The translations under genes were made by a program, and so were the position numbers. A stretch of DNA of 64,000 nt from positions 1 through 64,000 of the forward strand of contig CALVEB010000009.1 in assembly GCA_944326465.1 (NCBI GenBank), written 5' to 3'. Below the pieces are notes generated by a model, which was not told the DNA's origin, did no database searches, and saw only the letters and a list, made by a program, of their open reading frames with translations. The stretch is from Candidatus Gastranaerophilales bacterium. GTDB taxonomy: Bacteria; Cyanobacteriota; Vampirovibrionia; Gastranaerophilales; Gastranaerophilaceae. Positions 3,932-54,805 of the stretch are shown piece by piece; positions within the stretch are counted from its first letter, which is position 1, and each line of letters starts with the position of its first letter.

Positions 3932-4765
3932 ATGCAAATTTGTCACAACTGCAAAAAACCTTTTTCTCTGTTTAAAAGTCCGGTCTACTCTCGTACTTCC
4001 AAAGCTGTTAAACCGGCATTTACACTGGCTGAAGTATTAATCACACTTGCTATCATCGGTGTAGTTGCCGCACTTACACTGCCGTCAGTTATTCAAAATT
4101 TTAAGGAACGACAATATGTTTCACAACTAAAAAAGACATATTCAGTACTTCAAAATGCTTTCCAGATGGCAATTGCAGAACATGGAACACTTGATCAATG
4201 GGGATTGACAAATACAGTTATTGGTGTAGACGAAGAGGGGAATTCAATAATAGATGCCGCTCCGGGGCAATTAATTTTTTCTTATATTGAACCGTATTTA
4301 AATATTGTTACAAATGACTATCTGTACTCAAGCGACAAATTATACTCCTTAGACGGACGTTACAGAGAAACAACGCCTGCTGTACCGTCAGAAGACAACA
4401 AAGAACTGCCTCTAGGTGGAACACTGGCAGACGGCTCATTTTTTCAAATAGGCTGGATTAATTCGGGCGGCTGTAGCGCACCAGCGGGTAAATGCGGTGA
4501 TTTTTGGATATATTTGCCTGATAAAAAACAACAATTGGGAGTAACAATGTTTAATTTCTGGCTCACAAAAAATGGACTGCTGCCAAGAGGGTATTCAGGC
4601 GATACCGGCTACCCTTTTGAACGTGATTGTGATATAAAAAACAAGGAAGGACGCCCGAGTGACGTCCAGGGCAGAGGCTGCGCAGGCTGGGTAATATATC
4701 AGGGGAATATGAACTATTTGCATTGTGATGACCTGTCATGGTCGGGTAAGAAAAAGTGTGATTAA
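3932..4765 (+). CDS. Type II/IV prepilin-like protein
   Basis: The 277-residue protein has a 29-residue leader containing a CHNC pair, then the prepilin motif A|FTLAEVLITLAIIGVVAALT at residues 29-49. The mature Glu5 and hydrophobic alpha-1 helix are both present. The -1 residue is Ala rather than the usual Gly, as in the other two prepilins here. The C-terminal half contains several Cys residues (GGCSAPAGKCGDFWIY; YLHCDDLSWSGKKKCD) likely to form disulphides outside the inner membrane. AGGAGG precedes the ATG. No pilus assembly genes are nearby, so whether it builds a pilus or a type II-like pseudopilus is unknown. Confidence 0.85.
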   Translation: MQICHNCKKPFSLFKSPVYSRTSKAVKPAFTLAEVLITLAIIGVVAALTLPSVIQNFKERQYVSQLKKTYSVLQNAFQMAIAEHGTLDQWGLTNTVIGVDEEGNSIIDAAPGQLIFSYIEPYLNIVTNDYLYSSDKLYSLDGRYRETTPAVPSEDNKELPLGGTLADGSFFQIGWINSGGCSAPAGKCGDFWIYLPDKKQQLGVTMFNFWLTKNGLLPRGYSGDTGYPFERDCDIKNKEGRPSDVQGRGCAGWVIYQGNMNYLHCDDLSWSGKKKCD

Positions 4766-11084: not shown

Positions 11085-12257
11085 ATGAAGAAAAAGAAAG
11101 TTGAAGCGAGCGAATGCGAAGCAATCCAGCCAATTGAAAAAGACGTTAATCGTCACAAAAGCACAGGCACTAATTCCTGTAACCACTTAATCACTCAATC
11201 ACTTAGTCACTTAATCACTTCTAAAGCGGCCGCCTTTACGTTAGCAGAGGTCCTCATTACGTTGGCGGTTATCGGCATCGTTGCCGCGTTAACCCTTCCG
11301 GGTCTCATCCAGAACCACAATGAAAAAGCATGGTCTACTGCAAAAGACCTCTGGGAAAAGAAATTAACTGAAACAGTTCGCCGCATGAATGTAGACGGTG
11401 TAATGACAGGTCACGATTCTACAGAGGATTTCATGAATACTTTCAAAAATTACATGAAAGTAATCAAAACCTGTGACAAGGATGACATCAACAAATGTTA
11501 TTCACCTAAAATCGTTACAACAGGTAAAGACGATGCACTGGAAGAAATCGAAACTAACGGTCTCACTTCAGCATCAAGCATGGGCTTAAAGGAATGGCAG
11601 ACCAATACAAATACCATGAGCTTTGTTGTAGCAGACGGAACAACGGTAATTATGGCATACCAACCGGAATGCCCTTATGCTGATCCTATAGAAGATACAG
11701 GCTCTCAAGTATCCTGCATGGCATATATGGTAGATGTAAACGGTAAGAAGGGGCCTAATAGAGTTGGAAAGGATATTGAATTATCATCAGGCGTAGCGTT
11801 CTCTACTTGCGATAACCCGATAGGAGACATGTGCTGGTCTACAGATTTTGCTGCCAATAGAGCAATAGATACCTGCGCTGGCAGCGAATATGAAGATATG
11901 GAAGAACAACATGGAAGCAACTGCACTACAAACTATTGGGCAGGTGCAAAATTAAGTTGTCAAGAGAAAGGCATGGAACTTCCAACAAAAGCACAGATAG
12001 CACAACTAGCAAGCAATCTATATGTTGATAGCAACGGAAACGCAGTAACAATAGGAGAAAGCGAAGACAGAGAAAACCTCAAAGTAAAGGATGAATACAA
12101 AGATAATCCTCCAATCTCTCTTGGTTACTACTACTGGTTCAATGATGAGGATCATGGAGATCGCGCGTTCGGACGGAGCTTCAACACTTCCAGCAGTGAC
12201 TGGGAGAACTACGGCAAGGCCTACAGCTACTTCCGCGCCGTATGTATTTCGAACTAA
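11085..12257 (+). CDS. Prepilin-like protein with candidate DGR-variable C-terminus
   Basis: This 390-residue protein starts after AGGAGAAAAGT. Its unusually long 50-residue leader, including HLITQSLSHLITS encoded by short DNA repeats, ends at A50|FTLAEVLITLAVIGIVAALT, a prepilin cleavage site and alpha-1 helix. The soluble part has many Cys residues. It closes with WFNDEDHGDRAFGRSF and YFRAVCIS, resembling the C-type-lectin/FGE-like fold seen in many DGR targets. The last 30 codons are GC-rich and mostly NNC, unlike the rest of the gene, and a perfect hairpin begins at the stop. It is homologous to the 14652 prepilin. The function is probably surface or secreted binding, which is inference. 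Confidence 0.87.
   Translation: MKKKKVEASECEAIQPIEKDVNRHKSTGTNSCNHLITQSLSHLITSKAAAFTLAEVLITLAVIGIVAALTLPGLIQNHNEKAWSTAKDLWEKKLTETVRRMNVDGVMTGHDSTEDFMNTFKNYMKVIKTCDKDDINKCYSPKIVTTGKDDALEEIETNGLTSASSMGLKEWQTNTNTMSFVVADGTTVIMAYQPECPYADPIEDTGSQVSCMAYMVDVNGKKGPNRVGKDIELSSGVAFSTCDNPIGDMCWSTDFAANRAIDTCAGSEYEDMEEQHGSNCTTNYWAGAKLSCQEKGMELPTKAQIAQLASNLYVDSNGNAVTIGESEDRENLKVKDEYKDNPPISLGYYYWFNDEDHGDRAFGRSFNTSSSDWENYGKAYSYFRAVCISN
12162..12248 (+). other. Candidate DGR variable region (VR) in a prepilin C-terminus
   Basis: About 18 of 29 codons here are of the form NNC (CGC, TTC, AGC, GAC, TAC, GGC, GCC, AAC), the set expected when AAC codons of a template are randomised at both adenines. The stretch is visibly GC-richer than its surroundings. 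It ends in a conserved-looking GC-rich tail before the hairpin at 12252. I could not find a matching template repeat in the window, so this is a candidate only. Confidence 0.55.
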
Positions 12258-14651: not shown

Positions 14652-15869
14652 CTAATTTTGTGTTACACATATAGCCATATATGATGATGTATTTCGTTCA
14701 TAGTTCAGATTGCTAGAATACCCATAGGTTCCTTTAAAGCTGTAATATCTTTGATACGCCTCCTCTTTATTGATTTCTTCATTAGACCAGATAAAAAAGT
14801 CACCTGTGCCAAAAGGAGCAACTCTTTCAGGATCTTTGCTTAATCCGCTGCCTATATTTGTTCCTGCCCCAATTTCTCTATCTGTATTATAAATGTACAT
14901 AGCCAATTTACCTAGTTGCTCTCGAGTCGGCATATTATTTACTCCTTCGCATGCAATGACGGCTCCTGCCCAATAATCATTTTGGTAGCCCCATCTGCTG
15001 TCAAAACAATATTGCATACCATATTTATTTAAAATGTCATCATTACAATCGTTTTTATTAAGTGGATTATATTGATAAGCAGGTAATATGCGAGTAATAC
15101 ACATTATATCAGCTAATTCAGGTATCATACAACCGGTTGTGCCTGCTAATTCTGTTACGTTGATGTGATTAATATCTTTGCCATTCGTATTAGGGTTCTT
15201 GTTGCCAGATACATCGTAAAGAATCGCCATGCTGTTTGAAGTTGCGTTAAACTGATTATTATACGGATCCTGTGTAGCATTAGGATTATATGCAATAACC
15301 GCGTTTACTCCATTTGCAAACTGTACCGCTACTGTATCGCTTTCCCAGTCAAGTCCAAAGTTTTGCGCATTCTTGATTGCAGACATGTCAACAGGTTCAT
15401 CACCTTCGTTCCAGATTACTTGTTTATTGAAACACTTTGTAATCTCGTTATTGTCGCACACTCTGGTGATTTTGATGTATTTCTTTAGTTCGTTTACAAA
15501 ATCCATGGTGTTGTCGTAACCTGCAAGTTTTTCTTCTGTATTCATCTGACGTGTTGCGACTTCTAAACGCTTAGTGAATACATCTTGTGCGGTTGACCAT
15601 GCCTTCTCGTTGTGGTTCTTTATTAAACCGGGGATTGTCAGAACAGCCACCACGCCAATTACTGCGAGGGTGATTAATACTTCAGCCAAAGTGAAAGCGG
15701 CGCGCATTCCTCTCCCGCAAGGGGCGAGGGTATGTTCAAATGTTGACCGTACTTCTTTAGCGGTCTCCATGTAAGAGCGGACTTGTCCGCCAGACTTCGT
15801 CTGCCAGGCTTGCCTGCCCTCGGTGAGAGTAAACGCTTTACCTGATAAATAGTTTTTAAAATCTTTCAT
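14652..15869 (-). CDS. Prepilin-like protein with expanded leader
   Basis: I start this 405-residue protein at the ATG at 15869, five bases after AAGGAG. The leader is 58 residues long and ends at A58|FTLAEVLITLAVIGVVAVLT. An earlier KAFTLTEG at residues 11-18 looks like a duplicated version of the cleavage region. The 46 residues between them derive from repeat-like DNA, including a CCTCTCCCGCAAGGGGCGAGG hairpin. The mature protein aligns with the 11085 prepilin (IPGLIKNHNEKAWSTAQD) through to the same C-terminal lectin-like ending (YMAICVTQN). Here the C-terminal codons are AT-rich and show no variable-region signature. Confidence 0.87.
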   Translation of the reverse strand: MKDFKNYLSGKAFTLTEGRQAWQTKSGGQVRSYMETAKEVRSTFEHTLAPCGRGMRAAFTLAEVLITLAVIGVVAVLTIPGLIKNHNEKAWSTAQDVFTKRLEVATRQMNTEEKLAGYDNTMDFVNELKKYIKITRVCDNNEITKCFNKQVIWNEGDEPVDMSAIKNAQNFGLDWESDTVAVQFANGVNAVIAYNPNATQDPYNNQFNATSNSMAILYDVSGNKNPNTNGKDINHINVTELAGTTGCMIPELADIMCITRILPAYQYNPLNKNDCNDDILNKYGMQYCFDSRWGYQNDYWAGAVIACEGVNNMPTREQLGKLAMYIYNTDREIGAGTNIGSGLSKDPERVAPFGTGDFFIWSNEEINKEEAYQRYYSFKGTYGYSSNLNYERNTSSYMAICVTQN

Positions 15870-15886
15870 AAAATTCTCCTTCACTG

Positions 15887-24479: not shown

Positions 24480-24968
24480 ATGAAACGAATTATATTACAT
24501 TGGACAGCCGGTGTATATCATCCAAATGAACATGAACTGGAATGTTATCATTTTCTGGTAGACAAGGATGGGAACATTCATAACGGGAAATTCAAACCTG
24601 AGAGTAATGAGATATGTAAACCCGGTCAATATGCAGCGCATACAGGAGGCGGCAATACAGGTTCTATAGGAGCAGCCCTTTGTGCAATGGCAGGCTTTAA
24701 AAGCAGAAGCGAGTGCGGAAATTATCCAATCACAGCCAAACAATTTGAAGCAGCCATGAAATTATGCGCTGAACTGGCAAAAAAATACAACATTAAAATT
24801 ACTCCGAATACATTGATGACCCATTATGAATTCGGACTGAAAAATCCTAATACCAGCAGTGCCGGTAAAATAGACATTGTATATATACCACCTTATCCCT
24901 GGGTCGCTCAGAATGATGTCGGCGCGTTTATACGCTCGAAAGTTAAATGGTATATGCTGCGGGGATAG
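24480..24968 (+). CDS. N-acetylmuramoyl-L-alanine amidase (phage endolysin type)
   Basis: This 162-residue Amidase_2/PGRP-fold enzyme cuts the bond between muramic acid and the stem peptide. Visible landmarks are IILHWTAG (first zinc His, residue 8), YHFLVDKDGNIH, YAAHTGGGNTGSIGAAL, and THYEFG, a His in place of the usual second metal-ligand segment. It has no signal peptide, as expected for a T7-type amidase of similar size that needs a holin. No holin is seen nearby. Confidence 0.88.
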   Translation: MKRIILHWTAGVYHPNEHELECYHFLVDKDGNIHNGKFKPESNEICKPGQYAAHTGGGNTGSIGAALCAMAGFKSRSECGNYPITAKQFEAAMKLCAELAKKYNIKITPNTLMTHYEFGLKNPNTSSAGKIDIVYIPPYPWVAQNDVGAFIRSKVKWYMLRG

Positions 24969-24989
24969 GCCAATTATTTAAAATACGGG

Positions 24990-25015
24990 TGTATATGGTG
25001 TATTCACTATATACA
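24990..25015 (+). other. Hairpin before the coat gene
   Basis: TGTATATGGTG (24990-25000) pairs with CACTATATACA (25005-25015) with one G-T pair. It lies between the amidase and coat genes and could be an attenuator or an RNA processing site. Confidence 0.5.
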
Positions 25016-25056
25016 ACCATGGTGTGACACTTAAAAAAATGAAAGGGAAAATCAAA

Positions 25057-25947
25057 ATGACAGAATCTTCAACTGGTGAAACAACACAACAAACAACAGC
25101 TTCACAAAAAGGTTACGATGTATTTGTGCCTGAGATATGGAGCCAAAAACTTAATGCATTACTCGAAAAAGAATGTGTTATGCTGCAATGCGTCAATAGA
25201 AATTATGAAGGCGAAATTGCTAATCAAGGCGATACAGTAAAAATCATTACGCCGGCAAAAGTTACAATTTCTACACTGGGCTCATCAAGCATTACATACG
25301 ATGAATTAGAACCGGAATCACAGGATCTGGTAATTGATCAGAAGAAATTCTTTGCCTTTAAAATCAATGATATTGCGCATGTACAGGCAAATACAGATAT
25401 CATGATTGCGCATCTTGCTAATGCTAAAAAAGCTATTGAAGAAGTACAGGATACTTACCTGCTTTCTATGCACAGCAACGTAGAAAAAGCAAATACTGTC
25501 GGCAGCGATGAGTCTCCTATTGCATTGAGCAAAACCACAATCTATGAACAATTTGTAAAACTTGCATTATGTTTGAAAAATTCTGATGCAGTACATGCAG
25601 GTATTCGTCCTTGGGTAGTCATTAATCCAACTATAGAATCTTACCTGCTTCAAAGCTCTGAATTTATCAGTGCACACAACGTTGCTGATAAAACCTTGAG
25701 AGAAGGTGCAATAGGCAGAATTGCAGGCATGGATGTTCTGGTATCTACAAATCTGACAGCAACAGACAATAAATACTATGTTATGGCCGGAACAAATGAA
25801 GCAATAACATTTGCCTCACAGCTTGCAAGAATTGAAACTCTTAGAGATAAAGACAGTTTTTCTGATCTGGTCAGAGGCTTGTATTTATACGGAGCAAAAA
25901 CAGTACAACCGAAAGCATTGGCTAAAGCAGTATTTAATGCAATCTAA
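25057..25947 (+). CDS. Phage major coat protein (HK97-fold, P22/podovirus-like)
   Basis: This 296-residue protein is the best capsid candidate. I start it at MTESSTGETTQ, preceded by AAAGGG; longer forms have no ribosome binding site. An extended N-arm leads into DVFVPEIWSQKLNALLEKECV, the usual opening of the coat family, and GDTVKIITPAKVTI is the E-loop-like region. The central spine and A-domain include RPWVVINPTIESYLLQ and GRIAGMDVLVSTNL. A probable scaffold gene and a terminator follow, consistent with a high-level structural gene. Confidence 0.85.
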   Translation: MTESSTGETTQQTTASQKGYDVFVPEIWSQKLNALLEKECVMLQCVNRNYEGEIANQGDTVKIITPAKVTISTLGSSSITYDELEPESQDLVIDQKKFFAFKINDIAHVQANTDIMIAHLANAKKAIEEVQDTYLLSMHSNVEKANTVGSDESPIALSKTTIYEQFVKLALCLKNSDAVHAGIRPWVVINPTIESYLLQSSEFISAHNVADKTLREGAIGRIAGMDVLVSTNLTATDNKYYVMAGTNEAITFASQLARIETLRDKDSFSDLVRGLYLYGAKTVQPKALAKAVFNAI

Positions 25948-25961
25948 CCCTGAAAATCACT

Positions 25962-25986
25962 GCGGGTGTGAAAAACACCCGCTTTT
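25962..25986 (+). terminator. Terminator after coat gene
   Basis: GCGGGTGT (25962-25969) and ACACCCGC (25975-25982), loop GAAAA, then TTTT. Confidence 0.9.
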
Positions 25987-26023
25987 CCTAATTAGTACAA
26001 ATGAAATTTAAAAAGGAGAATTT

Positions 26024-26629
26024 ATGTCAGATACAAATGAACAAAATAAAGATAAAATATCACAGTCTAATAATCAGCACAAAAGCTCACAAGATATGTT
26101 CGGCGATATGGAAAAAATCATATCACTGATAAAATCCGGTACAATGCCGCAAGAACAAGGGCTGGCTTTATTACAAAGATTTACCGGCGGTTCACAATCA
26201 AAAGAAAACTCTACATCTCAACAGACCGCTCAGAACAGTGATAATAAAAATCAGGAAACAGACAGAGAACAAATATCTAATAACAATAATTACAATTCAA
26301 ATAGCAGTTACAACGAAATTTTTGATTATTTAAACAAAGTAAGTCCGTCTTTAAACCAAGATGATTATGATAGAATTTCCGGCATGATTGGTAATCTTGA
26401 GAACAAAGCGGTTGAAAAGTACACAAAACAGATGGATTATGAAAAAAATCTAAGAAATCAAAATGACTCAGATAAACGCCGCATGACATCCAATGCGCAA
26501 GGTTATGGCTATGACGGGAATAAAAACAGGAAATTTACACGTGCAGAAATCGGCAAAATGTCTACAAAAGAATTTCTGGAAAATGAGGCTGCTATTTATG
26601 AACAGCTTAGAAAAGGTGATATTCGTTAA
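26024..26629 (+). CDS. Probable phage scaffolding protein
   Basis: This 201-residue, very hydrophilic, Gln/Asn/Ser-rich protein has predicted helices at both ends and a disordered middle (about 60-100). That composition and its place next to the coat gene fit an assembly scaffold. MEKIISLIKSGTMPQEQGLALLQRF resembles small oligomerisation helices. There is no recognisable sequence signature, so the function is inferred from context. AAAGGAG precedes the start. Confidence 0.6.
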   Translation: MSDTNEQNKDKISQSNNQHKSSQDMFGDMEKIISLIKSGTMPQEQGLALLQRFTGGSQSKENSTSQQTAQNSDNKNQETDREQISNNNNYNSNSSYNEIFDYLNKVSPSLNQDDYDRISGMIGNLENKAVEKYTKQMDYEKNLRNQNDSDKRRMTSNAQGYGYDGNKNRKFTRAEIGKMSTKEFLENEAAIYEQLRKGDIR

Positions 26630-26636
26630 AAAATAA

Positions 26637-26662
26637 CGGGGACAAATTGTCCCCGATTATTT
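26637..26662 (+). terminator. Terminator-like hairpin after scaffold gene
   Basis: CGGGGACA (26637-26644) and TGTCCCCG (26648-26655), followed by ATTATTT. The T-run is broken, so read-through is likely. Confidence 0.65.
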
Positions 26663-26676
26663 AAAGGAGATTAAAT

Positions 26677-27315
26677 ATGAACTATCTGGATATAATAAAT
26701 AAATGTTTGTCAGAATTAAACTTTCGTCAGGTGAATGATTTTTCTGAACTGATAAAGCCCGAACATCAGCGCATTAAAAATTACATAAATCTTGTTGCGC
26801 AAGATGTATGCACTTCAATGAACTGGAATTTTTTACTAAGACAAAAAGAATTATCGCTTCCAGCCGAAACAAGGCAGGTACAAAATAATATTTACGGACG
26901 GATACTTGCAGTATATATTGACGGGATAAAATACAATTTTTGTGAAGATTTTCAGGTATTTTTAACCTGCAGTAATAAAGCAAAAGTCTTTAGCGTATTC
27001 AATGATAAACTTTTATTTCCTGAATTTGAAGACGACAAGCTTATAAATATCATTTACTATACCCGAAATCTTGCAATTTCTGCCGGCAATCAGGAAAAAA
27101 GCTATCTGGAAGCGCCTGATGATAAACCGCTTATTCCGGAGCCTTTTGTCGAACAAATTCTTGTTTACGGAACATGCCTGCGGCTTAAAGGTGAACCAGA
27201 ACATATAAAATTCAGTTACTGGCAGGATATGTATAATTCAGCACTTGCAAATATGCGTTCTAAAATCGCTATTGATGCTGATTATACACCATTTGTAAGG
27301 TTGTTTAGAAGATAA
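26677..27315 (+). CDS. Phage head-tail adaptor (T7 gp11/tail tubular A-like)
   Basis: This 212-residue protein has the layout of podovirus tail tubular protein A/adaptors: an N-terminal helical bundle (YLDIINKCLSELNFRQVNDF ... AQDVCTSMNWNFLLRQKELSL) and a beta-rich middle. A helical C-terminus follows, with the typical PEPFVEQILVYGTCLRLKGEPE. The adaptor attaches below the portal ring. It sits between scaffold and terminase genes. AAAGGAG precedes the start. Confidence 0.75.
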   Translation: MNYLDIINKCLSELNFRQVNDFSELIKPEHQRIKNYINLVAQDVCTSMNWNFLLRQKELSLPAETRQVQNNIYGRILAVYIDGIKYNFCEDFQVFLTCSNKAKVFSVFNDKLLFPEFEDDKLINIIYYTRNLAISAGNQEKSYLEAPDDKPLIPEPFVEQILVYGTCLRLKGEPEHIKFSYWQDMYNSALANMRSKIAIDADYTPFVRLFRR

Positions 27316-27466
27316 AAATGCTGTGAAAATTAAGGCAAAAAAAACAGGAAGTAAAATTCATTGCCCCCTGTTAAGATTTACACTAGCCGAAATATAAATA
27401 GCATGCTTATTATACAATTTTTTTCATAAAAACACAAATTATATTGAGAAATGTAAACTTTTAACG

Positions 27467-27898
27467 ATGAAAAAATTAACAAATCAACAGAAAAAATTTG
27501 TGTCAGAATACATAAAATCTTTAGATGGCGAGCTTTCGGCCAAACGTGCCGGTTATAAATCTAAAGATTTGAAAGAAGTCGCCGAAAGATTACTTTCTGA
27601 CAAAGTCGTAATAAATGAAATAAAACTTCAAATACAAAATCAAATATCTTCACTATGCGTACACAAGGGCTATGTTATACAAAAATTGTTACAGATAGCA
27701 GAATTCTCATTAACTGAAGAAGATATTCTTGATAAGGAAGGCTGTATAACAGGAAAACGAAAACTCCGTGATACTTCGGCCGGATTAAAAGCACTGGAAA
27801 ATCTTTGCAAATACCTCGGCTTTAATGAACCGGAAACCGAAGATTACAAACCGGCCAAAATTATTACTATTTCTAACCTTGATGATGAAAAAATTTAA
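27467..27898 (+). CDS. Phage terminase small subunit
   Basis: This 143-residue protein begins LTNQQKKFVSEYIKSLDGELSAKRAGYKSKDLKEVAERLLSD-type helices, the terminase_2/HTH_Tnp-like DNA-binding domain that recognises the packaging start. The C-terminal half continues with RDTSAGLKALENLCKYLGF, typical for oligomerisation and TerL contact. It lies upstream of portal and TerL. A 151-base gap precedes it, with no clear feature except a weak AACAGG/CCTGTT pairing. Confidence 0.83.
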   Translation: MKKLTNQQKKFVSEYIKSLDGELSAKRAGYKSKDLKEVAERLLSDKVVINEIKLQIQNQISSLCVHKGYVIQKLLQIAEFSLTEEDILDKEGCITGKRKLRDTSAGLKALENLCKYLGFNEPETEDYKPAKIITISNLDDEKI

Positions 27899-27921
27899 CA
27901 GTTAACCAAAGGAGATTTAAC

Positions 27922-28284
27922 ATGAAAAATCAAGATAATAATGTTGAACAAATACTTTTATCAAACGCTACAATAGATGATTTGATAAAGAAAAAAATAG
28001 AAAATGAATATATAGCTGCAATAGAAAAGGCAAAAGCAGTTAAAAAAGTAATACGAGAAACAGATATCTCCAGAGTTCCGAAGGAACTAATCTTTTCTAA
28101 CAAATCAGTTTTTAGAGTGTATAACAAAAAATCACAAACCGAAACCTGTATAAACGGCATACAGGCCGAGGCATTAATCGGGCTTCAAAATACTGTTCGG
28201 GAAAAGATAGCAAAAGGTGAAATGGCTTCTTTTGCTGCCGGAGATATGTTTGTTAAATTTGAACATGCAGAATATTTTGAATAA
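27922..28284 (+). CDS. Phage-associated protein of unknown function
   Basis: This 120-residue protein lies between small terminase and portal genes with AAAGGAG upstream. The N-terminal half is charged helix (IDDLIKKKIENEYIAAIEKAKAVKKVI) and the C-terminal half has small beta-like segments (VFRVYNKKSQTETCINGIQ). I recognise no family. Its position suggests a packaging or head-assembly accessory role. Confidence 0.7.
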   Translation: MKNQDNNVEQILLSNATIDDLIKKKIENEYIAAIEKAKAVKKVIRETDISRVPKELIFSNKSVFRVYNKKSQTETCINGIQAEALIGLQNTVREKIAKGEMASFAAGDMFVKFEHAEYFE

Positions 28285-28313
28285 TTGGTTACAAAATGAG
28301 GGATTAATAAATT

Positions 28314-30020
28314 ATGGAAATACAAAAAGACGATTTAACCAGAGGACTGTCCGTCGGAGAAGAAGTTAATCTGGTAAATACAATTTGTAAAAAATTTGAC
28401 GATTTTGAGAACCGCCGCAGTTCTCAATTAAGCGATATTAAGATGATAAAAAATGCTATTTATGATTTTGAATATCCGCGTATAAATTCATGGGATACAA
28501 GAATGTCGCTGCCGGATATCTACGAATTGGCGCAAACCTTGAAATCACATCTTAGTCAAAATTTATACTCACATTCTGATGCAATGTTTGATGTATCAGG
28601 TACAACACCGCAGACACAGATGTATGCCAACAGGCAAAAAGCCATGCTTGTTAATACTTTTGAGCGGATGAATATAGAAAACATACTGGATAAAATAATA
28701 GATAGCATTGTAGAAACAGGCGAAAGCACATTATTCATCGGCTGGGAAACCAAAATTAAACAAATCAGACGCGCTTTAACTCTGGAAGAACAGCTTCAAG
28801 GTAATTTTGAAAGCGGGTTTGTTATTGAAGATAAAATAATTTACGATAATGCAAAAATCAAACATATAAAACCCGAAGATTTTGTTTTCGACAAATTCAA
28901 TGCCGATAACTGGGATGCATGTGCAAAAATTTACAGAACATACAGCAGCCTAGATGAAATAATTTCAAATAAAGCAAATAACATGCTGACAGACGTTAAA
29001 AAGGAAATATTGAGAGGAGTGGTGGCTAAAAAACGGAGAACAGAAAATGACAGATCCGTAAATGACAATAAATTAGAAATATTAGAATACTGGGGAGATA
29101 TAGAGCTTTCCAACGGCGAAGTATTGAAAAACAGAATAGTCGTAGTGGCAGGACGCCGCGAAATTATACGTTTTGAAGCAAATCCGTTTGTTATAAATCC
29201 GTTCATTTATGCAAATATAATAGAAGATCCTGCAACCGGACGCGGCATTTCACCGCTCAGAGTTGCACTTGTTTTAAACAGCATATCATCAACGATTCTA
29301 AACAAACAATTAGATGCCCTTGCACTTATGATGAACCCGCCGTATCTTGCGCCAAAAGGATGTTTTAAAGGCCGTCAGGATGTGCATCCGGGTAAAATCA
29401 TTGAATATGACGCAGCCTTAATGCCGCAGCCTCCAACACCACTGGAATTTGACAAGGCAATGGTAGGCTGGGATTTTCTAAATTACTTCAAAAGTACTAT
29501 AGAAAGTGCAACAGGTATTTTCAAAAATATGGCCGGCGATATTCAGCCTGTTAACAGAACAGCAACAGAACTGAATTATTCCGCAAACGGGCAGGAAGCC
29601 AGATTGAATATGATGCTTGATGCAATAAATCGCAAAATTATTATACCAATGGTAGAAAAAACCGCCGAAATTATTGCTAATTTTAAACTGGGCAAAGAAA
29701 TTATAGCGGTTAACGACAGAGGTAATACGAAATTTCTGGAAATTGATGATAATATCAGAAATTCAAATTATATCTATCGTTACGGTGACCGTAAGGCAAC
29801 TTTTGAACGGAAAAATCGTATCAAAGAACTGTTTGAAGTCCTGAAAGCGCTATCAGAATTGCCTGATGTTAAAGAAAGCGTTAACTGGCTTGAATGTTTT
29901 AAATTTGCATTAGAACAATACGGAATTGAAAATGCAAATAATTTTCTTACGGATAAAAAATTAACGGAAACAGAAGAGCAAAACGCAGTAAACAGGAATA
30001 CAGGGGAATCGCGTATATAG
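28314..30020 (+). CDS. Phage portal (head-tail connector) protein
   Basis: This 568-residue protein matches podovirus portals in size and layout. Landmarks are the N-terminal clip/wing region (INSWDTRMSLPDIYELAQTL), the conserved IVETGESTLFIGWETK segment and LEILEYWGD. The helical crown follows (STIESATGIFKNMAGDIQPV ... TATELNYSANGQEARLNMML). The portal forms the dodecameric ring through which DNA is pumped. TerL follows after a hairpin, giving the order TerS, unknown, portal, TerL. Confidence 0.85.
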   Translation: MEIQKDDLTRGLSVGEEVNLVNTICKKFDDFENRRSSQLSDIKMIKNAIYDFEYPRINSWDTRMSLPDIYELAQTLKSHLSQNLYSHSDAMFDVSGTTPQTQMYANRQKAMLVNTFERMNIENILDKIIDSIVETGESTLFIGWETKIKQIRRALTLEEQLQGNFESGFVIEDKIIYDNAKIKHIKPEDFVFDKFNADNWDACAKIYRTYSSLDEIISNKANNMLTDVKKEILRGVVAKKRRTENDRSVNDNKLEILEYWGDIELSNGEVLKNRIVVVAGRREIIRFEANPFVINPFIYANIIEDPATGRGISPLRVALVLNSISSTILNKQLDALALMMNPPYLAPKGCFKGRQDVHPGKIIEYDAALMPQPPTPLEFDKAMVGWDFLNYFKSTIESATGIFKNMAGDIQPVNRTATELNYSANGQEARLNMMLDAINRKIIIPMVEKTAEIIANFKLGKEIIAVNDRGNTKFLEIDDNIRNSNYIYRYGDRKATFERKNRIKELFEVLKALSELPDVKESVNWLECFKFALEQYGIENANNFLTDKKLTETEEQNAVNRNTGESRI

Positions 30021-30029
30021 GCCTTTTTT

Positions 30030-30071
30030 GTGCCGCCTTACACCTCTTTATCATAAACAGGCGGCACTTTT
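30030..30071 (+). terminator. Hairpin between portal and large terminase
   Basis: GTGCCGCCT (30030-30038) and AGGCGGCAC (30059-30067) are perfect 9-bp arms around a 20-base loop, followed by TTTTCTTATT. Confidence 0.75.
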
Positions 30072-30097
30072 CTTATTAACAAAAAGGAATTAGAATT

Positions 30098-31387
30098 ATG
30101 GAATACAGGTTATTGAAAGCACAGCGCGAATTTTTGGAGATACCTCATAATCATAAGCTTGATGTAGCAGTATATCAGGGCGGATACGGGTCAGGCAAAA
30201 CCTTTTCCGGTTCTCTCTTAGGAATTCTTTTATGTCATAAGTTTCCGGGAATAAGAGGGCTGGTCGGAGCGCAGACTTACACCCTTGTCAGAGACACTAC
30301 TCTGCAAACTTATTTTGAACATCTTGATAACATGGGATTTATGGAGGGAAAAGACTATGAATGGTCTGCATCACAGCAAAAACTCACATTCAAAAACGGG
30401 TCAGAAATTTTGTTCCGCCACTTTGATGAACCTAATAAATTAAAATCCTTAAACTTAGGGTTTGTAGAAATCGAAGAAATGTCAGATATCCCTTATGACA
30501 CATTTTTAATGCTTTTAAGCCGCATGCGTCAAAAAATAAAGAAAAACTGGATAAACTTTAAATACAGAATTTTCGGTCACACAAACCCAGAAATGTCACG
30601 CGGCTGGATTTACAAAACTTTTGTGGTAAAACCCGCTGAAAACTACAGGCTTATCACAGCTCCTACAACAGAAAATATCTATCTTCCGGAAGGTTATTGC
30701 GAAGAATTAAAAAAACTTTATGATGAACAGTATTACAAAATTTTTGTGCTTGCCCAAAATGCGGAATATAACAACGGGCTTGTTATAAAGGATTTTACAG
30801 ACGAAAATATAAAAGAAATATTTTATCAACCGGAATTTGATTTACATATAAGCTGTGACTTTAACGTGGATCCTATGGCATGGGTGCTTGCGCACAAGAC
30901 AGAAGATAAGGTTTTCTATTTTGATGAAATAGTCTTGGAAAATACAACAACATCAAAAGCCTGTGAAGAATTCTGCAGGCGCTATCCAAACCATAAAGGC
31001 AAAATTATTATAAACGGCGACGCCTCAGGTGATAATCGAAGTTGTACAAGTGAATACACGAATTATGTAATAATAAAAAAAATGCTGCTTAAATACGGCT
31101 ATGATGTTGATATAAAAATAAAACCATATAATCCGCCTATCAGAAACAGAATAATGGCATTTAATGCTAAAGTTCGTTCGGCTGACGGAGAAGTATGCCT
31201 TTATGTGGATAAAAAATGCGAAAAGCTTTTATACAATATCTATAATTTGAGATATAAGGAAGGCACATCGCAAATTGATATTCCTACATACCAGCAGATA
31301 AAGCAATCCAAACAGCTAAAATTCTTATCACATCCGTTTGATGCAGCATCGTATCTAGTGGATTTTTACTGGCCGATAACATTATAA
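30098..31387 (+). CDS. Phage terminase large subunit
   Basis: This 429-residue packaging motor has the Walker A GGYGSGKT at residues 28-35 and a Walker B-like FVEIEEMSD. The C-terminal RNase H-fold nuclease has candidate metal-binding acids in ISCDFNVDPMAWV, INGDASGDNR and HPFDAASYLVDF. All domains are intact, so the protein could be active. It closes the phage-like block; the next gene, 125 bases on, is of a host-lineage type. Confidence 0.9.
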   Translation: MEYRLLKAQREFLEIPHNHKLDVAVYQGGYGSGKTFSGSLLGILLCHKFPGIRGLVGAQTYTLVRDTTLQTYFEHLDNMGFMEGKDYEWSASQQKLTFKNGSEILFRHFDEPNKLKSLNLGFVEIEEMSDIPYDTFLMLLSRMRQKIKKNWINFKYRIFGHTNPEMSRGWIYKTFVVKPAENYRLITAPTTENIYLPEGYCEELKKLYDEQYYKIFVLAQNAEYNNGLVIKDFTDENIKEIFYQPEFDLHISCDFNVDPMAWVLAHKTEDKVFYFDEIVLENTTTSKACEEFCRRYPNHKGKIIINGDASGDNRSCTSEYTNYVIIKKMLLKYGYDVDIKIKPYNPPIRNRIMAFNAKVRSADGEVCLYVDKKCEKLLYNIYNLRYKEGTSQIDIPTYQQIKQSKQLKFLSHPFDAASYLVDFYWPITL

Positions 31388-48973: not shown

Positions 48974-49540
48974 ATGGGAAAAATTATCCTGGCGTCTTCA
49001 TCTCCCAGAAGAGCCGATATTCTAAAAGAAAGTGGATACAGTTATGAAATTATACCGTCACCGTATGAAGAGCAACATACGCGGACGGTTTTTTCTTATG
49101 ATTATATAGAAAATCTGGCATACAGCAAAGCAAAAGCTGTTATTCCTTTATTAAAGGAAGCGGAAATTATTGTAGGTGCTGATACAATGGTTGTGATTGA
49201 TAATGATATTCTGGAAAAACCCCATAATGAGAGCGAAGCCTTTAAAATGCTTAAAAGATTATCGGGCAAAAAGCACAAAGTTGTTACGGCCATTGCTGTT
49301 ATTAAGAGCGATACCGGTAAGGTAATGAAAAAATCAGTAACAAGCGAAGTTGAATTTTATCCGCTGACTGATGAACAGATAAAAAATTATGTGACACAGT
49401 TCCACCCGCTTGATAAAGCAGGAGCCTACGGCATTCAAGAATTACCTGAAGGATTTGTCAAATCTTATACAGGGAGTTTAAAAAATATAATCGGACTTTG
49501 TCCGGATGCACTCAGCGAAATGTTACGACAAATAGCTTAA
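48974..49540 (+). CDS. maf: Maf-family nucleotide pyrophosphatase
   Basis: This 188-residue protein hydrolyses dTTP/UTP or modified nucleoside triphosphates. It shows ASSSPRRADILKESGY at the start, VGADTMVVIDNDILEKP, and DKAGAYGIQE, all family signatures. AGAGGGATT precedes the start. Its stop codon overlaps the stop of the convergent reverse transcriptase gene within a shared TTAA. Confidence 0.93.
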   Translation: MGKIILASSSPRRADILKESGYSYEIIPSPYEEQHTRTVFSYDYIENLAYSKAKAVIPLLKEAEIIVGADTMVVIDNDILEKPHNESEAFKMLKRLSGKKHKVVTAIAVIKSDTGKVMKKSVTSEVEFYPLTDEQIKNYVTQFHPLDKAGAYGIQELPEGFVKSYTGSLKNIIGLCPDALSEMLRQIA

Positions 49541-50670
49541 AGAATTTTTATTACCGTTCTGGTAAAATCTTTGTCGCATCCGACAAAAAGATTCCGGCAT
49601 TCAAGACAAATTTCCTTTCGCAGGTTAAAACAGGATACGGCTCTTAACATTCCGAGATAACTATTCATTGACGCCCGAAAAGTCAACAAATCCTCTTTTT
49701 CAAACCACGTATTTGATTGACGGTAGTTTTTTGCGAGTTTAAATACTCGTTTTAATGTCCTCTGGCGCGGCTGTATCCGCCCGTGTTTTATTATGAATCC
49801 AACAAAATCAATGCCGCGTTCTACTTTATTTATTTCTTTTTTATTCTGATGCAAGTCTAATTTTAACCGTTCTTTAAGAAATACTGTCAAATCTCTGTGC
49901 CATTCATTTAATTGTTTAGGATCAGTACTCATCATTACAAAATCATCTACATACCGGCAGTAGTATCTGCATTTTAGATGATGTTTTACATATTGATCAA
50001 GAACATTAAGGTAAACGTTACTAAAAAACTGGCTTGTGAGATTTCCGATAGGCAGGCCTTTTGATGAATCACAATACCAGAGACTTTTATAAGTCGGAAG
50101 AAGATCAAACTTCCATTTATTAGAGCGTATTTCAACATTAGTCCGCGGATCGTGGTATATAATCTGACGCAATAGTTTCAAAATCCATTCTTCTTGAACA
50201 TATCTTTCAAGTTCCTGCATCAAGATATCTTTATCAATACTGACAAAAAAATTTTTCAAATCTGCTTTCATATAATAAGCATCTCTTGTATAGTCCCTTG
50301 TAATGGATTTAGCGTATTTTGCGGTTTTGCGGCAGGCATTGAGCGTTCCGCGTTCAGGTATACAACTAAATGTATCGGAAATAAAACGATTATAAAATCT
50401 GTCTTTTATAGCATTATAAACAAGGTGATGGACAACCCTGTCTCTAAAACTTGCAGCCCAGACTTCACGCGGTTTCGGATGTAAAACCATAAAGCAGATG
50501 CTTTTTCCGATTTGATAATTCCCTGTTTTTAACTCATTGTATAAATCTAACAGATTTTCTTCCAGATTAAACTCAAATTCCAGTGCATTTAAAGTGTTTC
50601 TTTTATGCTTTCTGCATTCTTTATATGCAGTTGTCAAATCCTCGAACGTGAAATCATTTTTCAAATCCAT
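49537..50670 (-). CDS. DGR-type reverse transcriptase
   Basis: This 377-residue protein has the reverse transcriptase motifs in order: HPKPREVWAASFRDRVVHHL, FSCIPERGT, ADLKNFFVSID (136-146), GLPIGNLTSQFF (206-216) and RYVDDFVMM (239-247, catalytic YVDD). The IGNLTSQ form of motif 4 is typical of diversity-generating retroelement enzymes; group II intron enzymes have QGxxxSP. No maturase, endonuclease or retron RNA is seen. A DGR should also have a template repeat and often an avd gene; neither is visible nearby. The ribosome binding site is GGGGGG. Confidence 0.85.
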   Translation of the reverse strand: MDLKNDFTFEDLTTAYKECRKHKRNTLNALEFEFNLEENLLDLYNELKTGNYQIGKSICFMVLHPKPREVWAASFRDRVVHHLVYNAIKDRFYNRFISDTFSCIPERGTLNACRKTAKYAKSITRDYTRDAYYMKADLKNFFVSIDKDILMQELERYVQEEWILKLLRQIIYHDPRTNVEIRSNKWKFDLLPTYKSLWYCDSSKGLPIGNLTSQFFSNVYLNVLDQYVKHHLKCRYYCRYVDDFVMMSTDPKQLNEWHRDLTVFLKERLKLDLHQNKKEINKVERGIDFVGFIIKHGRIQPRQRTLKRVFKLAKNYRQSNTWFEKEDLLTFRASMNSYLGMLRAVSCFNLRKEICLECRNLFVGCDKDFTRTVIKIL

Positions 50671-50679
50671 AAGCCCCCC

Positions 50680-50735
50680 GATTCAAAATCATTTTAAACT
50701 TCACTTTTGAATCAGGTCAATTACCCTCAGGGTAA
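50680..50735. other. Two hairpins upstream of the reverse transcriptase
   Basis: GATTCAAAA (50680-50688) pairs with TTTTGAATC (50705-50713), and TTACCC/GGGTAA (50721-50726, 50730-50735) form a second small hairpin. They occupy the 101-base gap upstream of the reverse transcriptase and could end the 50772 transcript or control the RT. Confidence 0.5.
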
Positions 50736-50771
50736 AAATTAATAATAATTCATAAAAAATTAGCCTTATGG

Positions 50772-51890
50772 CTAATCCATGTGAGATGTCACTCCAATGG
50801 AAGTATTTTTGTCAATTTCTATAGTATGACGTATTATTGTATGAGCCATCAGTAAAAGGTACGGGTTAATTTCATTTGTGTTGGACATATTGATTTTTGC
50901 CTGCGGTTTATCAGTGGTTGATTTTTTTTCTTCGACAGTTGAAAAATTTACTTTTGATTGAACTGAATAGTGTTTTTCTTCACCTTCAATCCGAAGGAGC
51001 AGTTCTTCTTTCGGAAACTTTTGAGCGCATTCTATATTTATATGGACAGAATTTTTACTTTCAAGTATTAATACAGCAGTTACGATACCGTAATTTATGG
51101 TACTTATTGTGATAGTTAAAATACTTTCATCAGCCTCTGACCCCTCTGCGGTTTCAATATCAAGATCAAACCCGACGCCTTCCTGCAGCGGCAGCCACGG
51201 CAGATATAATAATAAAAGTGTTTTTAGAGTTTGCGTATTATCACCTTGAGAAGCCAGAGCTATGCTTGCATTTATGAGTTTTGCAGTATCTTTAAGCTGG
51301 CTTAAATCCGATACGCCCTGTTTTGCAGCCCCAGCCATTGCCATAATCAATTTTGTGACAGCATCTTTACCATTTGCCTGTATAAGTGCTGATATATCTG
51401 AAAGGTTAATCATTCCGTTTGCCATAATCGGTAAATTTTTCAACGAAGAAGAAAGTTGATTTAATAAAGCCTGATTAGTTTGAGCAGAAGCAGAACCGGG
51501 CAGAGTAAGCCCTTGCAATTGAGCGAGGATTTGTGCCTGAGTTTGAGAAAGCAAATTTCTGTGAGCTGCAAGTTGTTGATTAAAGCGCTGTTGCAACTGG
51601 GCATTAGAGATATTTTGCTGTAATATAAAAATCAATTCATTAAGATTTCGCGGCAATTTCATCAAATCTTTTATATAAACAGACCTGTCAGACCCACCGA
51701 GATTTGCCATCTGCGCCTCTGCAGCAGTTGTTTTTGCAGCCTGTGATGCAGTTTGGGCAGCAGTTTGAGCGACATTATTGTTAAATTGTGTTTGCTGCTG
51801 CGCGGCAGTGTTTTGAGCGGCTCTGTTTATGTTCAGCGCCTGATAGTTTACAAATTTAGATATTAAATGTCCCAGGTTAAAGTCGCTCAT
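50772..51890 (-). CDS. Unknown protein, weakly FliK-like layout
   Basis: This 372-residue protein has an Ala/Gln-rich, low-complexity N-terminal half (AAQQQTQFNNNVAQTAAQTA and similar) and a compact C-terminal domain with LLLYLPWLPLQEGVGFDLDI and INYGIVTAVLILESKNSVHI. Hook-length control proteins of the FliK type have this pattern, a Gln/Ala-rich ruler and a globular C-domain. There is no clear sequence match and no flagellar genes are in the window. It has no signal peptide. Confidence 0.75.
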   Translation of the reverse strand: MSDFNLGHLISKFVNYQALNINRAAQNTAAQQQTQFNNNVAQTAAQTASQAAKTTAAEAQMANLGGSDRSVYIKDLMKLPRNLNELIFILQQNISNAQLQQRFNQQLAAHRNLLSQTQAQILAQLQGLTLPGSASAQTNQALLNQLSSSLKNLPIMANGMINLSDISALIQANGKDAVTKLIMAMAGAAKQGVSDLSQLKDTAKLINASIALASQGDNTQTLKTLLLLYLPWLPLQEGVGFDLDIETAEGSEADESILTITISTINYGIVTAVLILESKNSVHINIECAQKFPKEELLLRIEGEEKHYSVQSKVNFSTVEEKKSTTDKPQAKINMSNTNEINPYLLLMAHTIIRHTIEIDKNTSIGVTSHMD

Positions 51891-51933
51891 ATTATATTTA
51901 TTATAACGATTTTTCGCAAAATGTCCAGAGGGG

Positions 51934-52923
51934 TTATTTACGTATCGGTAAATATGATTGAGGATAATTGTAATCTTCTTTAAAACCTAAGTGACGATAC
52001 ATTTTGAGAGCCTGAAAATTGTTTGTCTCTGTACATGTATTTACTTCGGTAATAGGGCGGTTTTCGTAATCAACCAGCTGCAAAACTTTTTGCAGCGAGT
52101 TTTTAAGCATGTGTTTTGAAAGCCCTCTGCCCTGATGATCTTTTTTTATTGCAACAATTGGAATATTCACTATCTTTCCGCCTGTTAAATTCATAAAACA
52201 GAAACCTACCGGAATATTGTTACAAAGCAGCACGCTTGTTGCTTCAGGTAAAAATTCCGCATAAATATTGTTCACTATTTTAGATAAAATATCATTTGTT
52301 CCGTCCAGAGACTTGAACCGCGGATCAAAAAGTGCATCTGCGCTGTCTTCAAAAGCTTCCTGAACAATAGGTACAGCTTCCTGAAAATATTCGTTTGACC
52401 ATTCAACTATTTTGTAACATGTATCCATTTCATTAAGTCTTGAAAGGTTTAATATATCGCGGGAATTTGTACCGTGCATTAAAAATCTTAGAACCGCAAT
52501 GCCTACAAAACGAAATCCGTATCGTGCAAGTTCGCTGATGATTGTTTTTTGTTCTCCGAGCATAGGATAACAGACTATTTTATCTTCGCGTTCTTTTTTG
52601 GTTTGTTCCAGAAACTCCTGAACAAGATAACGGCTTCTTTCAAGCAGATTTTCCATATTAAGACAATGGATTATGTTTAACTCAATAGCTTCGGAAATTG
52701 CTGTTGTGTACACACAAAATGCAACGGCTATAGAATTTTCATACATAACCAGACAATTTATTAAGCCTTTCTCATAAGATTCAATAAAATCGTCAAACCC
52801 GAGCGGGGCAAGTTCAAATTTATATTCGGAAACAGCCCTGTTTACAAAATCTTCATAAACAGTTTCAAAGCTCACATAATCTTTTGGTTCAAGTTTTTTT
52901 ACTACTATATTTTCTTCTGCCAT
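51934..52923 (-). CDS. GNAT-family N-acetyltransferase
   Basis: This 329-residue protein has two GNAT-like halves. The C-terminal one carries the acetyl-CoA-binding motif AIKKDHQGRGLSKHML and the closing ETNNFQALKMYRHLGFKE. The N-terminal half looks degenerate. The substrate cannot be inferred. It follows ribBA by 32 bases on the same strand, so it may be at the end of the riboflavin operon. Confidence 0.85.
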   Translation of the reverse strand: MAEENIVVKKLEPKDYVSFETVYEDFVNRAVSEYKFELAPLGFDDFIESYEKGLINCLVMYENSIAVAFCVYTTAISEAIELNIIHCLNMENLLERSRYLVQEFLEQTKKEREDKIVCYPMLGEQKTIISELARYGFRFVGIAVLRFLMHGTNSRDILNLSRLNEMDTCYKIVEWSNEYFQEAVPIVQEAFEDSADALFDPRFKSLDGTNDILSKIVNNIYAEFLPEATSVLLCNNIPVGFCFMNLTGGKIVNIPIVAIKKDHQGRGLSKHMLKNSLQKVLQLVDYENRPITEVNTCTETNNFQALKMYRHLGFKEDYNYPQSYLPIRK

Positions 52924-52955
52924 TGTCTTAATCCTTAATTGTGACCAGATGAAAG

Positions 52956-54164
52956 TTAATTAAACATGTGGTGCATTTTTTCTTTTTTTGTATTCATATA
53001 CCGCTCATTATACTCGTTAATAAAAGGCGGTATTTTAACTATATCATGAATTTTTAATCCGTAACCCTTTAAACCGATGATTTTTTTGGGGTTATTTGTG
53101 ATGAGATTAAAATTATTAAACCCCAGATCAAGAATTATTTGTGCTCCGACGCCGTAATCACGCAAATCAGGCTGGAAACCGAGTGAAATATTAGCCTCAA
53201 CAGTATCCTGCCCGCATTCCTGCAGATGATAGGCTTTGATTTTATTTACAAGCCCTATACCGCGGCCCTCATGCCCGCGAAGATAAATCAAAGCTCCCTT
53301 ACCGTATTCGCTAATCATCTTGAGCGCACTGTGCAGTTGATAATTACAGTCACATTTCAGACTGTGGAAAATATCACCGGTCAAACACTCGCTGTGAACA
53401 CGTATAAGCGGGATTTTATCGGATCCGTCGTCTTTTACAAGCGCAACATGTTCCTGATTGGTGAGTGTGTTTCGGTATCCGTATATTTCAAATTCACCAA
53501 ACTGAGTCGGCAGGTGTGCTTCTGCTTCTCTTGATACAATTCTTTCTGAGCGCAGGCGGTATGCAATCAAATCCGCGACAGTAATAAATTTCAAATTGTG
53601 CTTGTGAGCAAATTCAAAAAGTTCTTCTCTGTGAGCCATGTGTCCGTCTTTAGCCATAATCTCACACATTGCGCCAGCCGGCACATGACCGGCCAATCTT
53701 GCCATATCCACAACAGCCTCAGTGTGGCCTGTTCTTTGCAACACACCGCCACGTCGTGCAACACAAGGGAACAGATGACCCGGACGACGCAAATCTGATG
53801 GTCTGGCATCAGGTGCAAGCGCAACTTCTATAGTCTTTGCGCGATCAAAAGCTGAAATACCTGTTGTTACTCCGTACTTTTCTGCGGCATCAATACTTAT
53901 GGTGAACGCTGTTTTCATACTTTCGGTATTTTGTTCAACCATTTGCGGCAACTCAAGTTTTTCCGCAATTTCAGGTGTTATAGCAAGGCATATCAAACCC
54001 TTACATTCATTTGCCATAAAATGAATTATATCAGGTGTAACCATTTGCCCGGAGCATATTAAATCACCTTCATTTTCACGGTCCTCGTCATCAGCGACAA
54101 TTATTGGTTTTCCGGCTTTAAAATCTTCCAGCGCTTCTTCAATTGTGTTAAACTTATATTCCAT
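52956..54164 (-). CDS. ribBA: Bifunctional DHBP synthase/GTP cyclohydrolase II
   Basis: This 402-residue fusion carries out two steps of riboflavin synthesis. The N-terminal RibB domain has DEDRENEGDLI (metal-binding acids), TGISAFDRAKTIE and RTGHTEAVVDMARLAG. The C-terminal RibA domain has the zinc Cys residues in SECLTGDIFHSLKCDC and RGHEGRGIGL. Both active sites look intact. The start overlaps the ribE stop. ribD and ribH are not in the window. Confidence 0.96.
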   Translation of the reverse strand: MEYKFNTIEEALEDFKAGKPIIVADDEDRENEGDLICSGQMVTPDIIHFMANECKGLICLAITPEIAEKLELPQMVEQNTESMKTAFTISIDAAEKYGVTTGISAFDRAKTIEVALAPDARPSDLRRPGHLFPCVARRGGVLQRTGHTEAVVDMARLAGHVPAGAMCEIMAKDGHMAHREELFEFAHKHNLKFITVADLIAYRLRSERIVSREAEAHLPTQFGEFEIYGYRNTLTNQEHVALVKDDGSDKIPLIRVHSECLTGDIFHSLKCDCNYQLHSALKMISEYGKGALIYLRGHEGRGIGLVNKIKAYHLQECGQDTVEANISLGFQPDLRDYGVGAQIILDLGFNNFNLITNNPKKIIGLKGYGLKIHDIVKIPPFINEYNERYMNTKKEKMHHMFN

Positions 54165-54805
54165 TATAAAAATCCATTCTCCTGTAAAAAGTTTTGAGTA
54201 ATCTTACTTACATTATTGTTCGGGGACAAGAATTTTTCAACATATCTGCCTAAAATATCTGTTTCAATATTAACATTGTCACCTGTTTTCAGTTCTGACA
54301 GAGTTGTGTTGTTAAAAGTATGCGGGATAATTGCGGTTTTAAAGGTATTACCTTTAATTTCCGCCACGGTTAAGCTTACACCGTCTATTGCAACAGATCC
54401 TTTATGTACAACATACTTACATTCTGTTTCCGGAAGTTCAAAATACAGTTCATAAAACTCATCAAAATCAACTTTTCTCACAAATTTTCCAATGCAATCC
54501 ACATGTCCCTGTACAATATGCCCGCCCATACGACTCAACGGGGTAAGTGCGCGCTCAAGATTAACCTTACTGCCTGCTTTAAACTTTTTAAATGTTGTAA
54601 CATTAAGGGTTTCTTTACTAACCTGAACGGTAAATGAAGTATCGTCGAATTTAACAACTGTTTGACAACAGCCGTTAATCGCGATACTATCACCGATACT
54701 TATATCATCAAGAATCTTTTGACAGCGAACAACAAGACGGGCACCGCCATATTCCGGCGTAAAAGCTTTTATATCTCCTGTTTCTTCTATAATCCCTGTG
54801 AACAT
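54164..54805 (-). CDS. ribE: Riboflavin synthase alpha chain
   Basis: This 213-residue enzyme joins two lumazine molecules to make riboflavin. It has the two lumazine-binding repeats (MFTGIIEETGDIKAF at the start, GHIVQGHVDCIGKF in the middle) and the conserved SIAINGCCQTVV and GSVAIDGVSLTVAE. The length is standard. No FMN riboswitch is visible upstream. It is translated just before ribBA. Confidence 0.95.
   Translation of the reverse strand: MFTGIIEETGDIKAFTPEYGGARLVVRCQKILDDISIGDSIAINGCCQTVVKFDDTSFTVQVSKETLNVTTFKKFKAGSKVNLERALTPLSRMGGHIVQGHVDCIGKFVRKVDFDEFYELYFELPETECKYVVHKGSVAIDGVSLTVAEIKGNTFKTAIIPHTFNNTTLSELKTGDNVNIETDILGRYVEKFLSPNNNVSKITQNFLQENGFL

What the first reader, a model, noticed from the sequence alone, without database searches (positions are those of the whole stretch)
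49537..50670. DGR-type reverse transcriptase without visible template repeat or avd
The RT has the IGNLTSQ form of motif 4 and a YVDD catalytic site, collinear with DGR enzymes. It is squeezed between maf (overlapping stops) and a short gap with two hairpins, so there is no room for a standard adjacent template. It may act in trans on remote targets such as the prepilin 37 kb away, or its template may be elsewhere.
Basis: partly seen in the sequence, partly recalled or inferred. Interest (0 to 1): 0.8.

Follow-up and report, generated by a model that had tools for sequence, protein, structure and literature searches.

The report
Lone reverse transcriptase diversifying remote pilins
A gut relative of cyanobacteria carries a mutation-making reverse transcriptase that sits alone in the genome, while the RNA templates and helper genes it needs lie elsewhere and have apparently been used to rewrite the tips of some 35 pilin-like surface proteins, a split layout that standard searches would miss.

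Summary
Window 49537-50670(-) encodes an intact 377-aa RT with IGNLTSQ and YVDD. By sequence, structure and tree it is a DGR reverse transcriptase, and there is no template repeat (TR) or avd beside it. The rest of the genome resolves the puzzle. This Gastranaerophilales genome (2.07 Mb, 99.7% complete) has two avd-TR cassettes on other contigs, both well inside their contigs and both without an RT. The only other RT found is a Drt2-like defence enzyme. The cassettes' TRs match 35 variable repeats (VRs) at the 3' ends of mostly type IV prepilin-like genes. Mismatches concentrate at TR adenines (about 43% of A sites versus 6% of others; ten VRs have no non-A mismatch). Two congeners have maf and the 372-aa gene adjacent, with no RT between them. 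Among 383 genomes of the order, the unlinked RTs fall in one supported clade with the window RT. A covarying hairpin precedes the TR in both cassettes and in relatives with a linked RT. Best reading: one RT serving remote templates in trans. Trans action is inferred from sequence, not shown.

The parts
49537..50670 (-). DGR-type reverse transcriptase, 377 aa, stand-alone
   Evidence: ORF; RVT_1; 8ub7; trees; fold
50671..50771 (-). Leader between the 372-aa gene and the RT: three small inverted repeats in or overlapping it, promoter-like TTGACC-18-TAAAAT at 50720-50691; partly resembles the TR2-avd2 spacer on C12
   Evidence: the resemblance is weak (27.5 against a best shuffle of 27.0); the promoter-like site is at chance level
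49541..50772 (-). Segment absent from the same place in congeners G002 and G003 (approximate limits)
48974..49540 (+). maf, convergent neighbour, stop overlaps the RT stop; not part of the system
   Evidence: PF02545
50772..51890 (-). 372-aa gene of unknown family, upstream neighbour; not part of the system
   Evidence: no Pfam, NCBIfam, PADLOC or PHROG match
11085..12257 (+). Type IV prepilin-like gene, possible remote target
   Evidence: PF07963 above cut-off
12103..12257 (+). Eroded VR matching TR2 of contig C12
   Evidence: in the core 22/48 A and 14/79 non-A mismatches, p 7e-4

Best explanation
The RT is the single, stand-alone reverse transcriptase of a split diversity-generating retroelement. 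Two other places in the genome (contigs C12 and C19) carry an avd gene and a template repeat but no RT. The templates carry a conserved hairpin on their 5' side. The inferred steps are: the RT, with Avd, copies the TR RNA with errors at adenines, and the mutated cDNA replaces the matching VR at the 3' end of prepilin-like genes scattered over the genome (32 VRs for TR2, 3 for TR1). Shown here: the gene is a DGR-type RT; it has no template or avd in cis; no other DGR-type RT was found in the genome; the two cassettes and their A-specific VRs exist; the hairpin is conserved. Inferred: that this RT acts on both cassettes in trans, and that it is active now. TR2/avd2 is the likelier cognate: the closest relative of the window RT (G071, about 65% identical) lies about 1.5 kb from an avd 72% identical to avd2, next to tpiA, where the avd2 cassette also sits here. 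TR1/avd1 resembles another DGR lineage (the avd of congener G003, 64% identical), so use of TR1 by this RT is less certain.
For: DGR RT by sequence, fold and tree. Two avd genes over the Pfam bAvd cut-off on C19 and C12. TR/VR pairs beside or near them with 20/20 and 21/21 mismatches at TR adenines and no RT in the regions read. 35 VRs, 26 with p below 1e-4 for A-specificity and ten with no non-A mismatch; 51 of the 52 adenines of TR2 in codon positions 1 or 2, and 31 of 32 TR2 VRs distinct. The only other RT is Drt2-like. G189 has the same separation; G079 and G378 look similar; these RTs form one clade with the window RT, 99/93. Leader hairpin with covariation in both cassettes and 15 relatives, reached by 0 of 500 shuffles.
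Against: No read data, expression or biochemistry: trans action and current activity are not shown. avd1/TR1 belongs to another DGR lineage and may have lost its own RT. VRs can persist without an RT, as in congener G001 (about 18 VR-like sites, no avd or RT). The genome is in 52 contigs, so an unassembled RT cannot be wholly excluded.
Confidence: 0.83

Rival explanations
1. The window RT serves only its lineage partner, the avd2/TR2 cassette. The avd1/TR1 cassette is the remnant of a second DGR that lost its own RT.
For: avd1 is 64% identical to the avd of congener G003, which has its RT in cis, while avd2 and the window RT are both closest to G071. TR1 has few VRs.
Against: avd1 is intact, and two TR1 VRs have at most one non-A mismatch, so they have not visibly decayed. 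Both cassettes carry the leader hairpin.
Confidence: 0.3
2. The system is dead or dying: the cassettes were diversified by RTs since lost, and the window RT is an unrelated or inactive survivor.
For: Targets persist without RT and TR in G001 here and in some T. denticola isolates (PMC4891356). Several VRs are eroded.
Against: The RT is intact with the catalytic and invariant residues of its family. Ten VRs have no non-A mismatch. Unlinked RTs of the same clade are kept in other genera.
Confidence: 0.1
3. Assembly or binning artefact: a second DGR RT is missing from the assembly, or the RT contig comes from another organism.
For: 52 contigs, many breaking near VRs.
Against: Both cassettes are read with about 9 kb or more on either side, so no RT is adjacent. 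The RT contig also carries a TR2-type VR, and the genes flanking the RT are 81-97% identical and collinear in congener G002. Completeness 99.7%.
Confidence: 0.04
4. The RT has another job, such as phage defence, and has nothing to do with the cassettes.
For: It stands alone next to housekeeping genes, and PADLOC's general RT models score on it.
Against: It reaches none of the NCBIfam defence-RT cut-offs. The nearest kin by tree, sequence and fold are DGR RTs, and avd and TR are present in the same genome.
Confidence: 0.03

Closest known systems
Bordetella phage BPP-1 DGR (avd-TR-brt operon, mtd target)
   Same: Homologous RT (32% identity over 88% to the BIP-1 copy), avd, A-specific TR/VR, VR at the end of the target gene
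   Different: There avd, TR and RT form one operon (PMC12875486); here the RT is on another contig and the targets are dispersed
Gastranaerophilales DGRs with the RT in cis (L026/G003, L020, L005 and others)
   Same: RT 55-60% identical, avd, prepilin-like targets, leader hairpin
   Different: target-avd-TR-RT in one locus; here no locus holds RT and TR together
Thiohalocapsa PB-PSB1 DGRs (PMC10907252)
   Same: Trans action inferred from VRs matching a remote TR; 15 targets with 21 VRs
   Different: Each class has one complete locus with RT, TR and accessory gene; here none is complete
Treponema denticola DGR (PMC4891356)
   Same: Remote paralogous targets, surface proteins
   Different: A core module of RT, TR and one target; two to seven targets per isolate in the text read
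Cyanobacterial DGRs (PMC7517822)
   Same: Dispersed paralogous targets with a C-terminal CLec domain
   Different: Remote targets assigned to DGRs that contain an RT; most targets predicted cytosolic, not prepilins

Membership tests
Diversity-generating retroelement | RT of the DGR clade with the (I/L/V)GxxxSQ motif | tested here: met
   IGNLTSQ; tree 96/95; fold
Diversity-generating retroelement | TR/VR pair with mismatches at TR adenines | tested here: met
   Not in cis; on C12 and C19, 21/21 and 20/20 at A; 35 VRs
Diversity-generating retroelement | Accessory avd gene | tested here: met
   Not in cis; two in the genome over the Pfam bAvd cut-off, though below the NCBIfam Avd cut-off
Diversity-generating retroelement | RT and TR in one locus (usual arrangement and survey criterion, within 1 kb in Roux 2021) | tested here: not met
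   No TR near the RT; no RT near either TR. It is a search criterion, not needed by the mechanism
Diversity-generating retroelement | Mutagenic retrohoming by this RT | not testable with these tools
   Needs reads or experiment
Diversity-generating retroelement | Target with C-type lectin fold | tested here: inconclusive
   Sub-threshold Lcl_C match in two relatives' targets; model of the window target pLDDT 45
Group II intron maturase | QGxxxSP motif and maturase score | tested here: not met
   IGNLTSQ; 109 bits against a cut-off of 300; outside their clade
Defence RTs (Drt2, Drt3a, Drt4) and St85 retron | NCBIfam score over the family cut-off | tested here: not met
   All far below cut-off

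The most novel reading that the evidence does not exclude
In one lineage of Gastranaerophilales the DGR reverse transcriptase has become an independent gene with its own leader. It recognises template RNAs in trans through a conserved hairpin, and RT-less avd-TR cassettes work as separate modules that together rewrite more than thirty prepilins. DGRs would then be modular: enzyme, template and targets inherited separately.
Probability: 0.5. Interest if true: 0.85.

Novelty: new variant of a known kind. Interest (0 to 1): 0.75.

Why it matters
DGR surveys look for a repeat next to an RT (Roux 2021: within 1 kb), so systems like this one escape that search. In the papers read here, experimentally characterised DGRs have all parts in one locus (stated in PMC10907252), and the trans-acting cases still keep RT and TR together. 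A lone RT with two RT-less templates makes a testable case for which part of the RNA the RT and Avd recognise, and for whether one enzyme can serve templates of different origin. The target set is large: 35 VRs on mostly prepilin-like proteins in a 2-Mb genome of a gut-associated lineage. That would give the cell a variable surface repertoire whose partner (host, phage or neighbour) is unknown.

Tried and rejected
A hidden TR near the RT or in the window: searched for A-biased repeats, for DNA similar to the RT region elsewhere, and for the TR leader; none found. The second RT of the genome as the DGR enzyme: it is Drt2-like. A recent phage source: one distant viral contig at 29% and phage DGR RTs at up to 48% identity, so no close one found. 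Structure of the window target: pLDDT 45, not used. My own first hand-drawn hairpin fitted worse (77% of cells paired) than the RNAalifold one (91%), which was used. A claim that 35 VRs is a record was rejected: Yan 2019 (PMC6642488) reports a Pseudomonas DGR with 91 VRs.

Full report
The gene. Window 49537-50670(-) is an intact ORF of 377 aa with GLPIGNLTSQ and RYVDD. It matches RVT_1 at 66 bits. Its closest solved relative is 8ub7, E 7e-40, and Foldseek with a good model (pLDDT 89.7) returns five states of the DGR ribonucleoprotein RT as the best hits. It scores far below the NCBIfam cut-offs for group II intron maturase, defence RTs and the St85 retron. In a maximum-likelihood tree it lies inside the DGR-type clade (96/95), with group II intron RTs outside.

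What is missing beside it. The RT stop overlaps the maf stop. Upstream lie 101 bp up to a 372-aa gene without a known family; three small inverted repeats lie in or overlap them, and a promoter-like site that is at chance expectation. My script found no A-biased repeat pair in the window. The RT region has no VR-like partner in the genome.

Where the rest is. The window is on contig C9 of a 52-contig genome of 2.07 Mb, 99.7% complete; its relatives are Gastranaerophilales. A search with the avd of congener G003 finds two intact avd genes, on C19 (64% identical) and C12 (44%). Both pass the Pfam bAvd cut-off but not the stricter NCBIfam one. Reading those regions shows a TR within about 220 bp of each avd and no RT within about 8 kb or more on either side. 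On C19 the order is target-avd-TR; the 128-bp TR differs from the VR of the adjacent target at 20 sites, all A in the TR. On C12 the order is TR-avd-tpiA; the 136-bp TR differs from a VR near the contig start at 21 sites, all A.

The targets. TR1 matches three VRs and TR2 thirty-two (places fetched; analysis). Nearly all end at or within a few bases of the stop codon of their ORF, and most ORFs not cut by a contig end or fetch limit carry the prepilin N-terminal motif. Summed over VRs, 42-44% of A sites differ and 6% of other sites. Twenty-six of 35 have p below 1e-4, and ten have no non-A mismatch. Of the 52 adenines of TR2, 51 are in codon positions 1 or 2; 31 of 32 TR2 VRs are distinct; and gene copies with 95% identical upstream sequence differ at 20-23 of 136 VR positions. 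The window prepilin 11085-12257 carries an eroded VR (22/48 A, 14/79 other).

Only one candidate enzyme. RVT_1 finds two proteins in the genome. The second is Drt2-like: 407 bits to PADLOC Drt2, and 360 bits against an NCBIfam cut-off of 390. So the window RT is the only DGR-type RT found.

Distribution. Among 383 genomes of the order, 40 have an avd match and 46 an RT match at the limits used. Comparing positions in those tables by eye, avd and RT lie within about 2 kb in nearly all genomes with both. The exceptions I read: G189 has an avd-TR-VR cassette on one contig (about 1.4 kb from its end), with its RT on another, about 0.7 kb from that contig's end but followed there by another gene. 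G079 has its RT inside one contig, and avd with a TR-like match near the end of another. G378 has a lone RT and an avd fragment at a contig end. G024, G133 and G083 have avd and no RT found. In the extended tree the window RT, G378, G189 and G079, plus G071 and G177 (RT about 1.5 kb from avd, with the target gene between them in G071), form one clade, 99/93. The separation therefore looks like an inherited trait of this RT lineage.

History at the locus. In G002 and G003 maf lies next to the 372-aa gene with no RT between them (in G003 the site lies across a contig break inside the 372-aa gene, but maf and that gene's end are on one contig). The segment specific to this genome is about 1.2 kb: the RT and its leader. 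Gain here or loss there cannot be told apart with two genomes. In G071 the closest RT lies near a prepilin target, an avd 72% identical to avd2, and tpiA; avd2 also sits beside tpiA here. This favours avd2/TR2 as the RT's original partner. The RT leader also resembles the TR2-avd2 spacer (27.5 against a best shuffle of 27.0), which is weak support.

RNA signal. Upstream of the TR in both cassettes, and near avd or TR in 15 relatives, linked or not, lies a hairpin: 10 pairs, 91% of cells paired, seven pairs with changes on both sides, covariation score 0.50 against a shuffled mean of 0.26, reached by 0 of 500 shuffles, and lower at every slid register. In several linked loci it overlaps the end of avd; at C12 it precedes the TR although no avd ends there. 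It is absent around the window RT. It is a candidate address for recognition in trans; recognition itself is untested. Relatedness of the sequences inflates such scores.

Limits. Activity is inferred from fixed differences. In T. denticola, targets persist in isolates without RT or TR (PMC4891356), and congener G001 shows the same here (about 18 VR-like sites, no avd or RT). The library holds open-licence papers only, so earlier reports of split DGRs may exist elsewhere. Within what I read, Roux 2021 requires a repeat within 1 kb of the RT, PB-PSB1 keeps one complete locus per class, and T. denticola keeps a core module.

Verdict. A DGR reverse transcriptase separated from its templates, most likely acting in trans on two RT-less cassettes and dozens of prepilin genes: a new variant of a known kind.

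Noticed in passing
G000 contig C49 (locus L002, 1135-2562 -): A second RT, Drt2-like (407 bits to PADLOC Drt2), a candidate defence enzyme.
   Followed up: partly
window 24480-31387: Phage-derived block: amidase (PF01510), SU10-type portal (PF23899) and terminase large subunit (PF04466) genes.
   Followed up: no
window 3932-4765 and 14652-15884: Two more prepilin-like genes; the second is a paralogue of 11085-12257 (36% identical). Neither gave a TR1 or TR2 match.
   Followed up: partly
   Followed up: no
genome G133 (L198): avd, TR and about 39 VR-like sites but no RT found.
   Followed up: no
L005 (JAMPIJ010000002.1): Record titled Fusobacterium sp. whose RT groups inside Gastranaerophilales and is identical to that of G142: probably mislabelled or misbinned.
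   Followed up: no
G000 contigs C7, C8, C10, C12, C17, C26, C32: Many VRs lie within a few hundred bases of contig ends, as expected if these repeats break the assembly.
   Followed up: no
window 50671-54805; L200 5664-8693; L011 588-7694: The RT lies near ribE-ribBA-GNAT in this genome, in G071 and in L011, in different arrangements; cause unknown.
   Followed up: no
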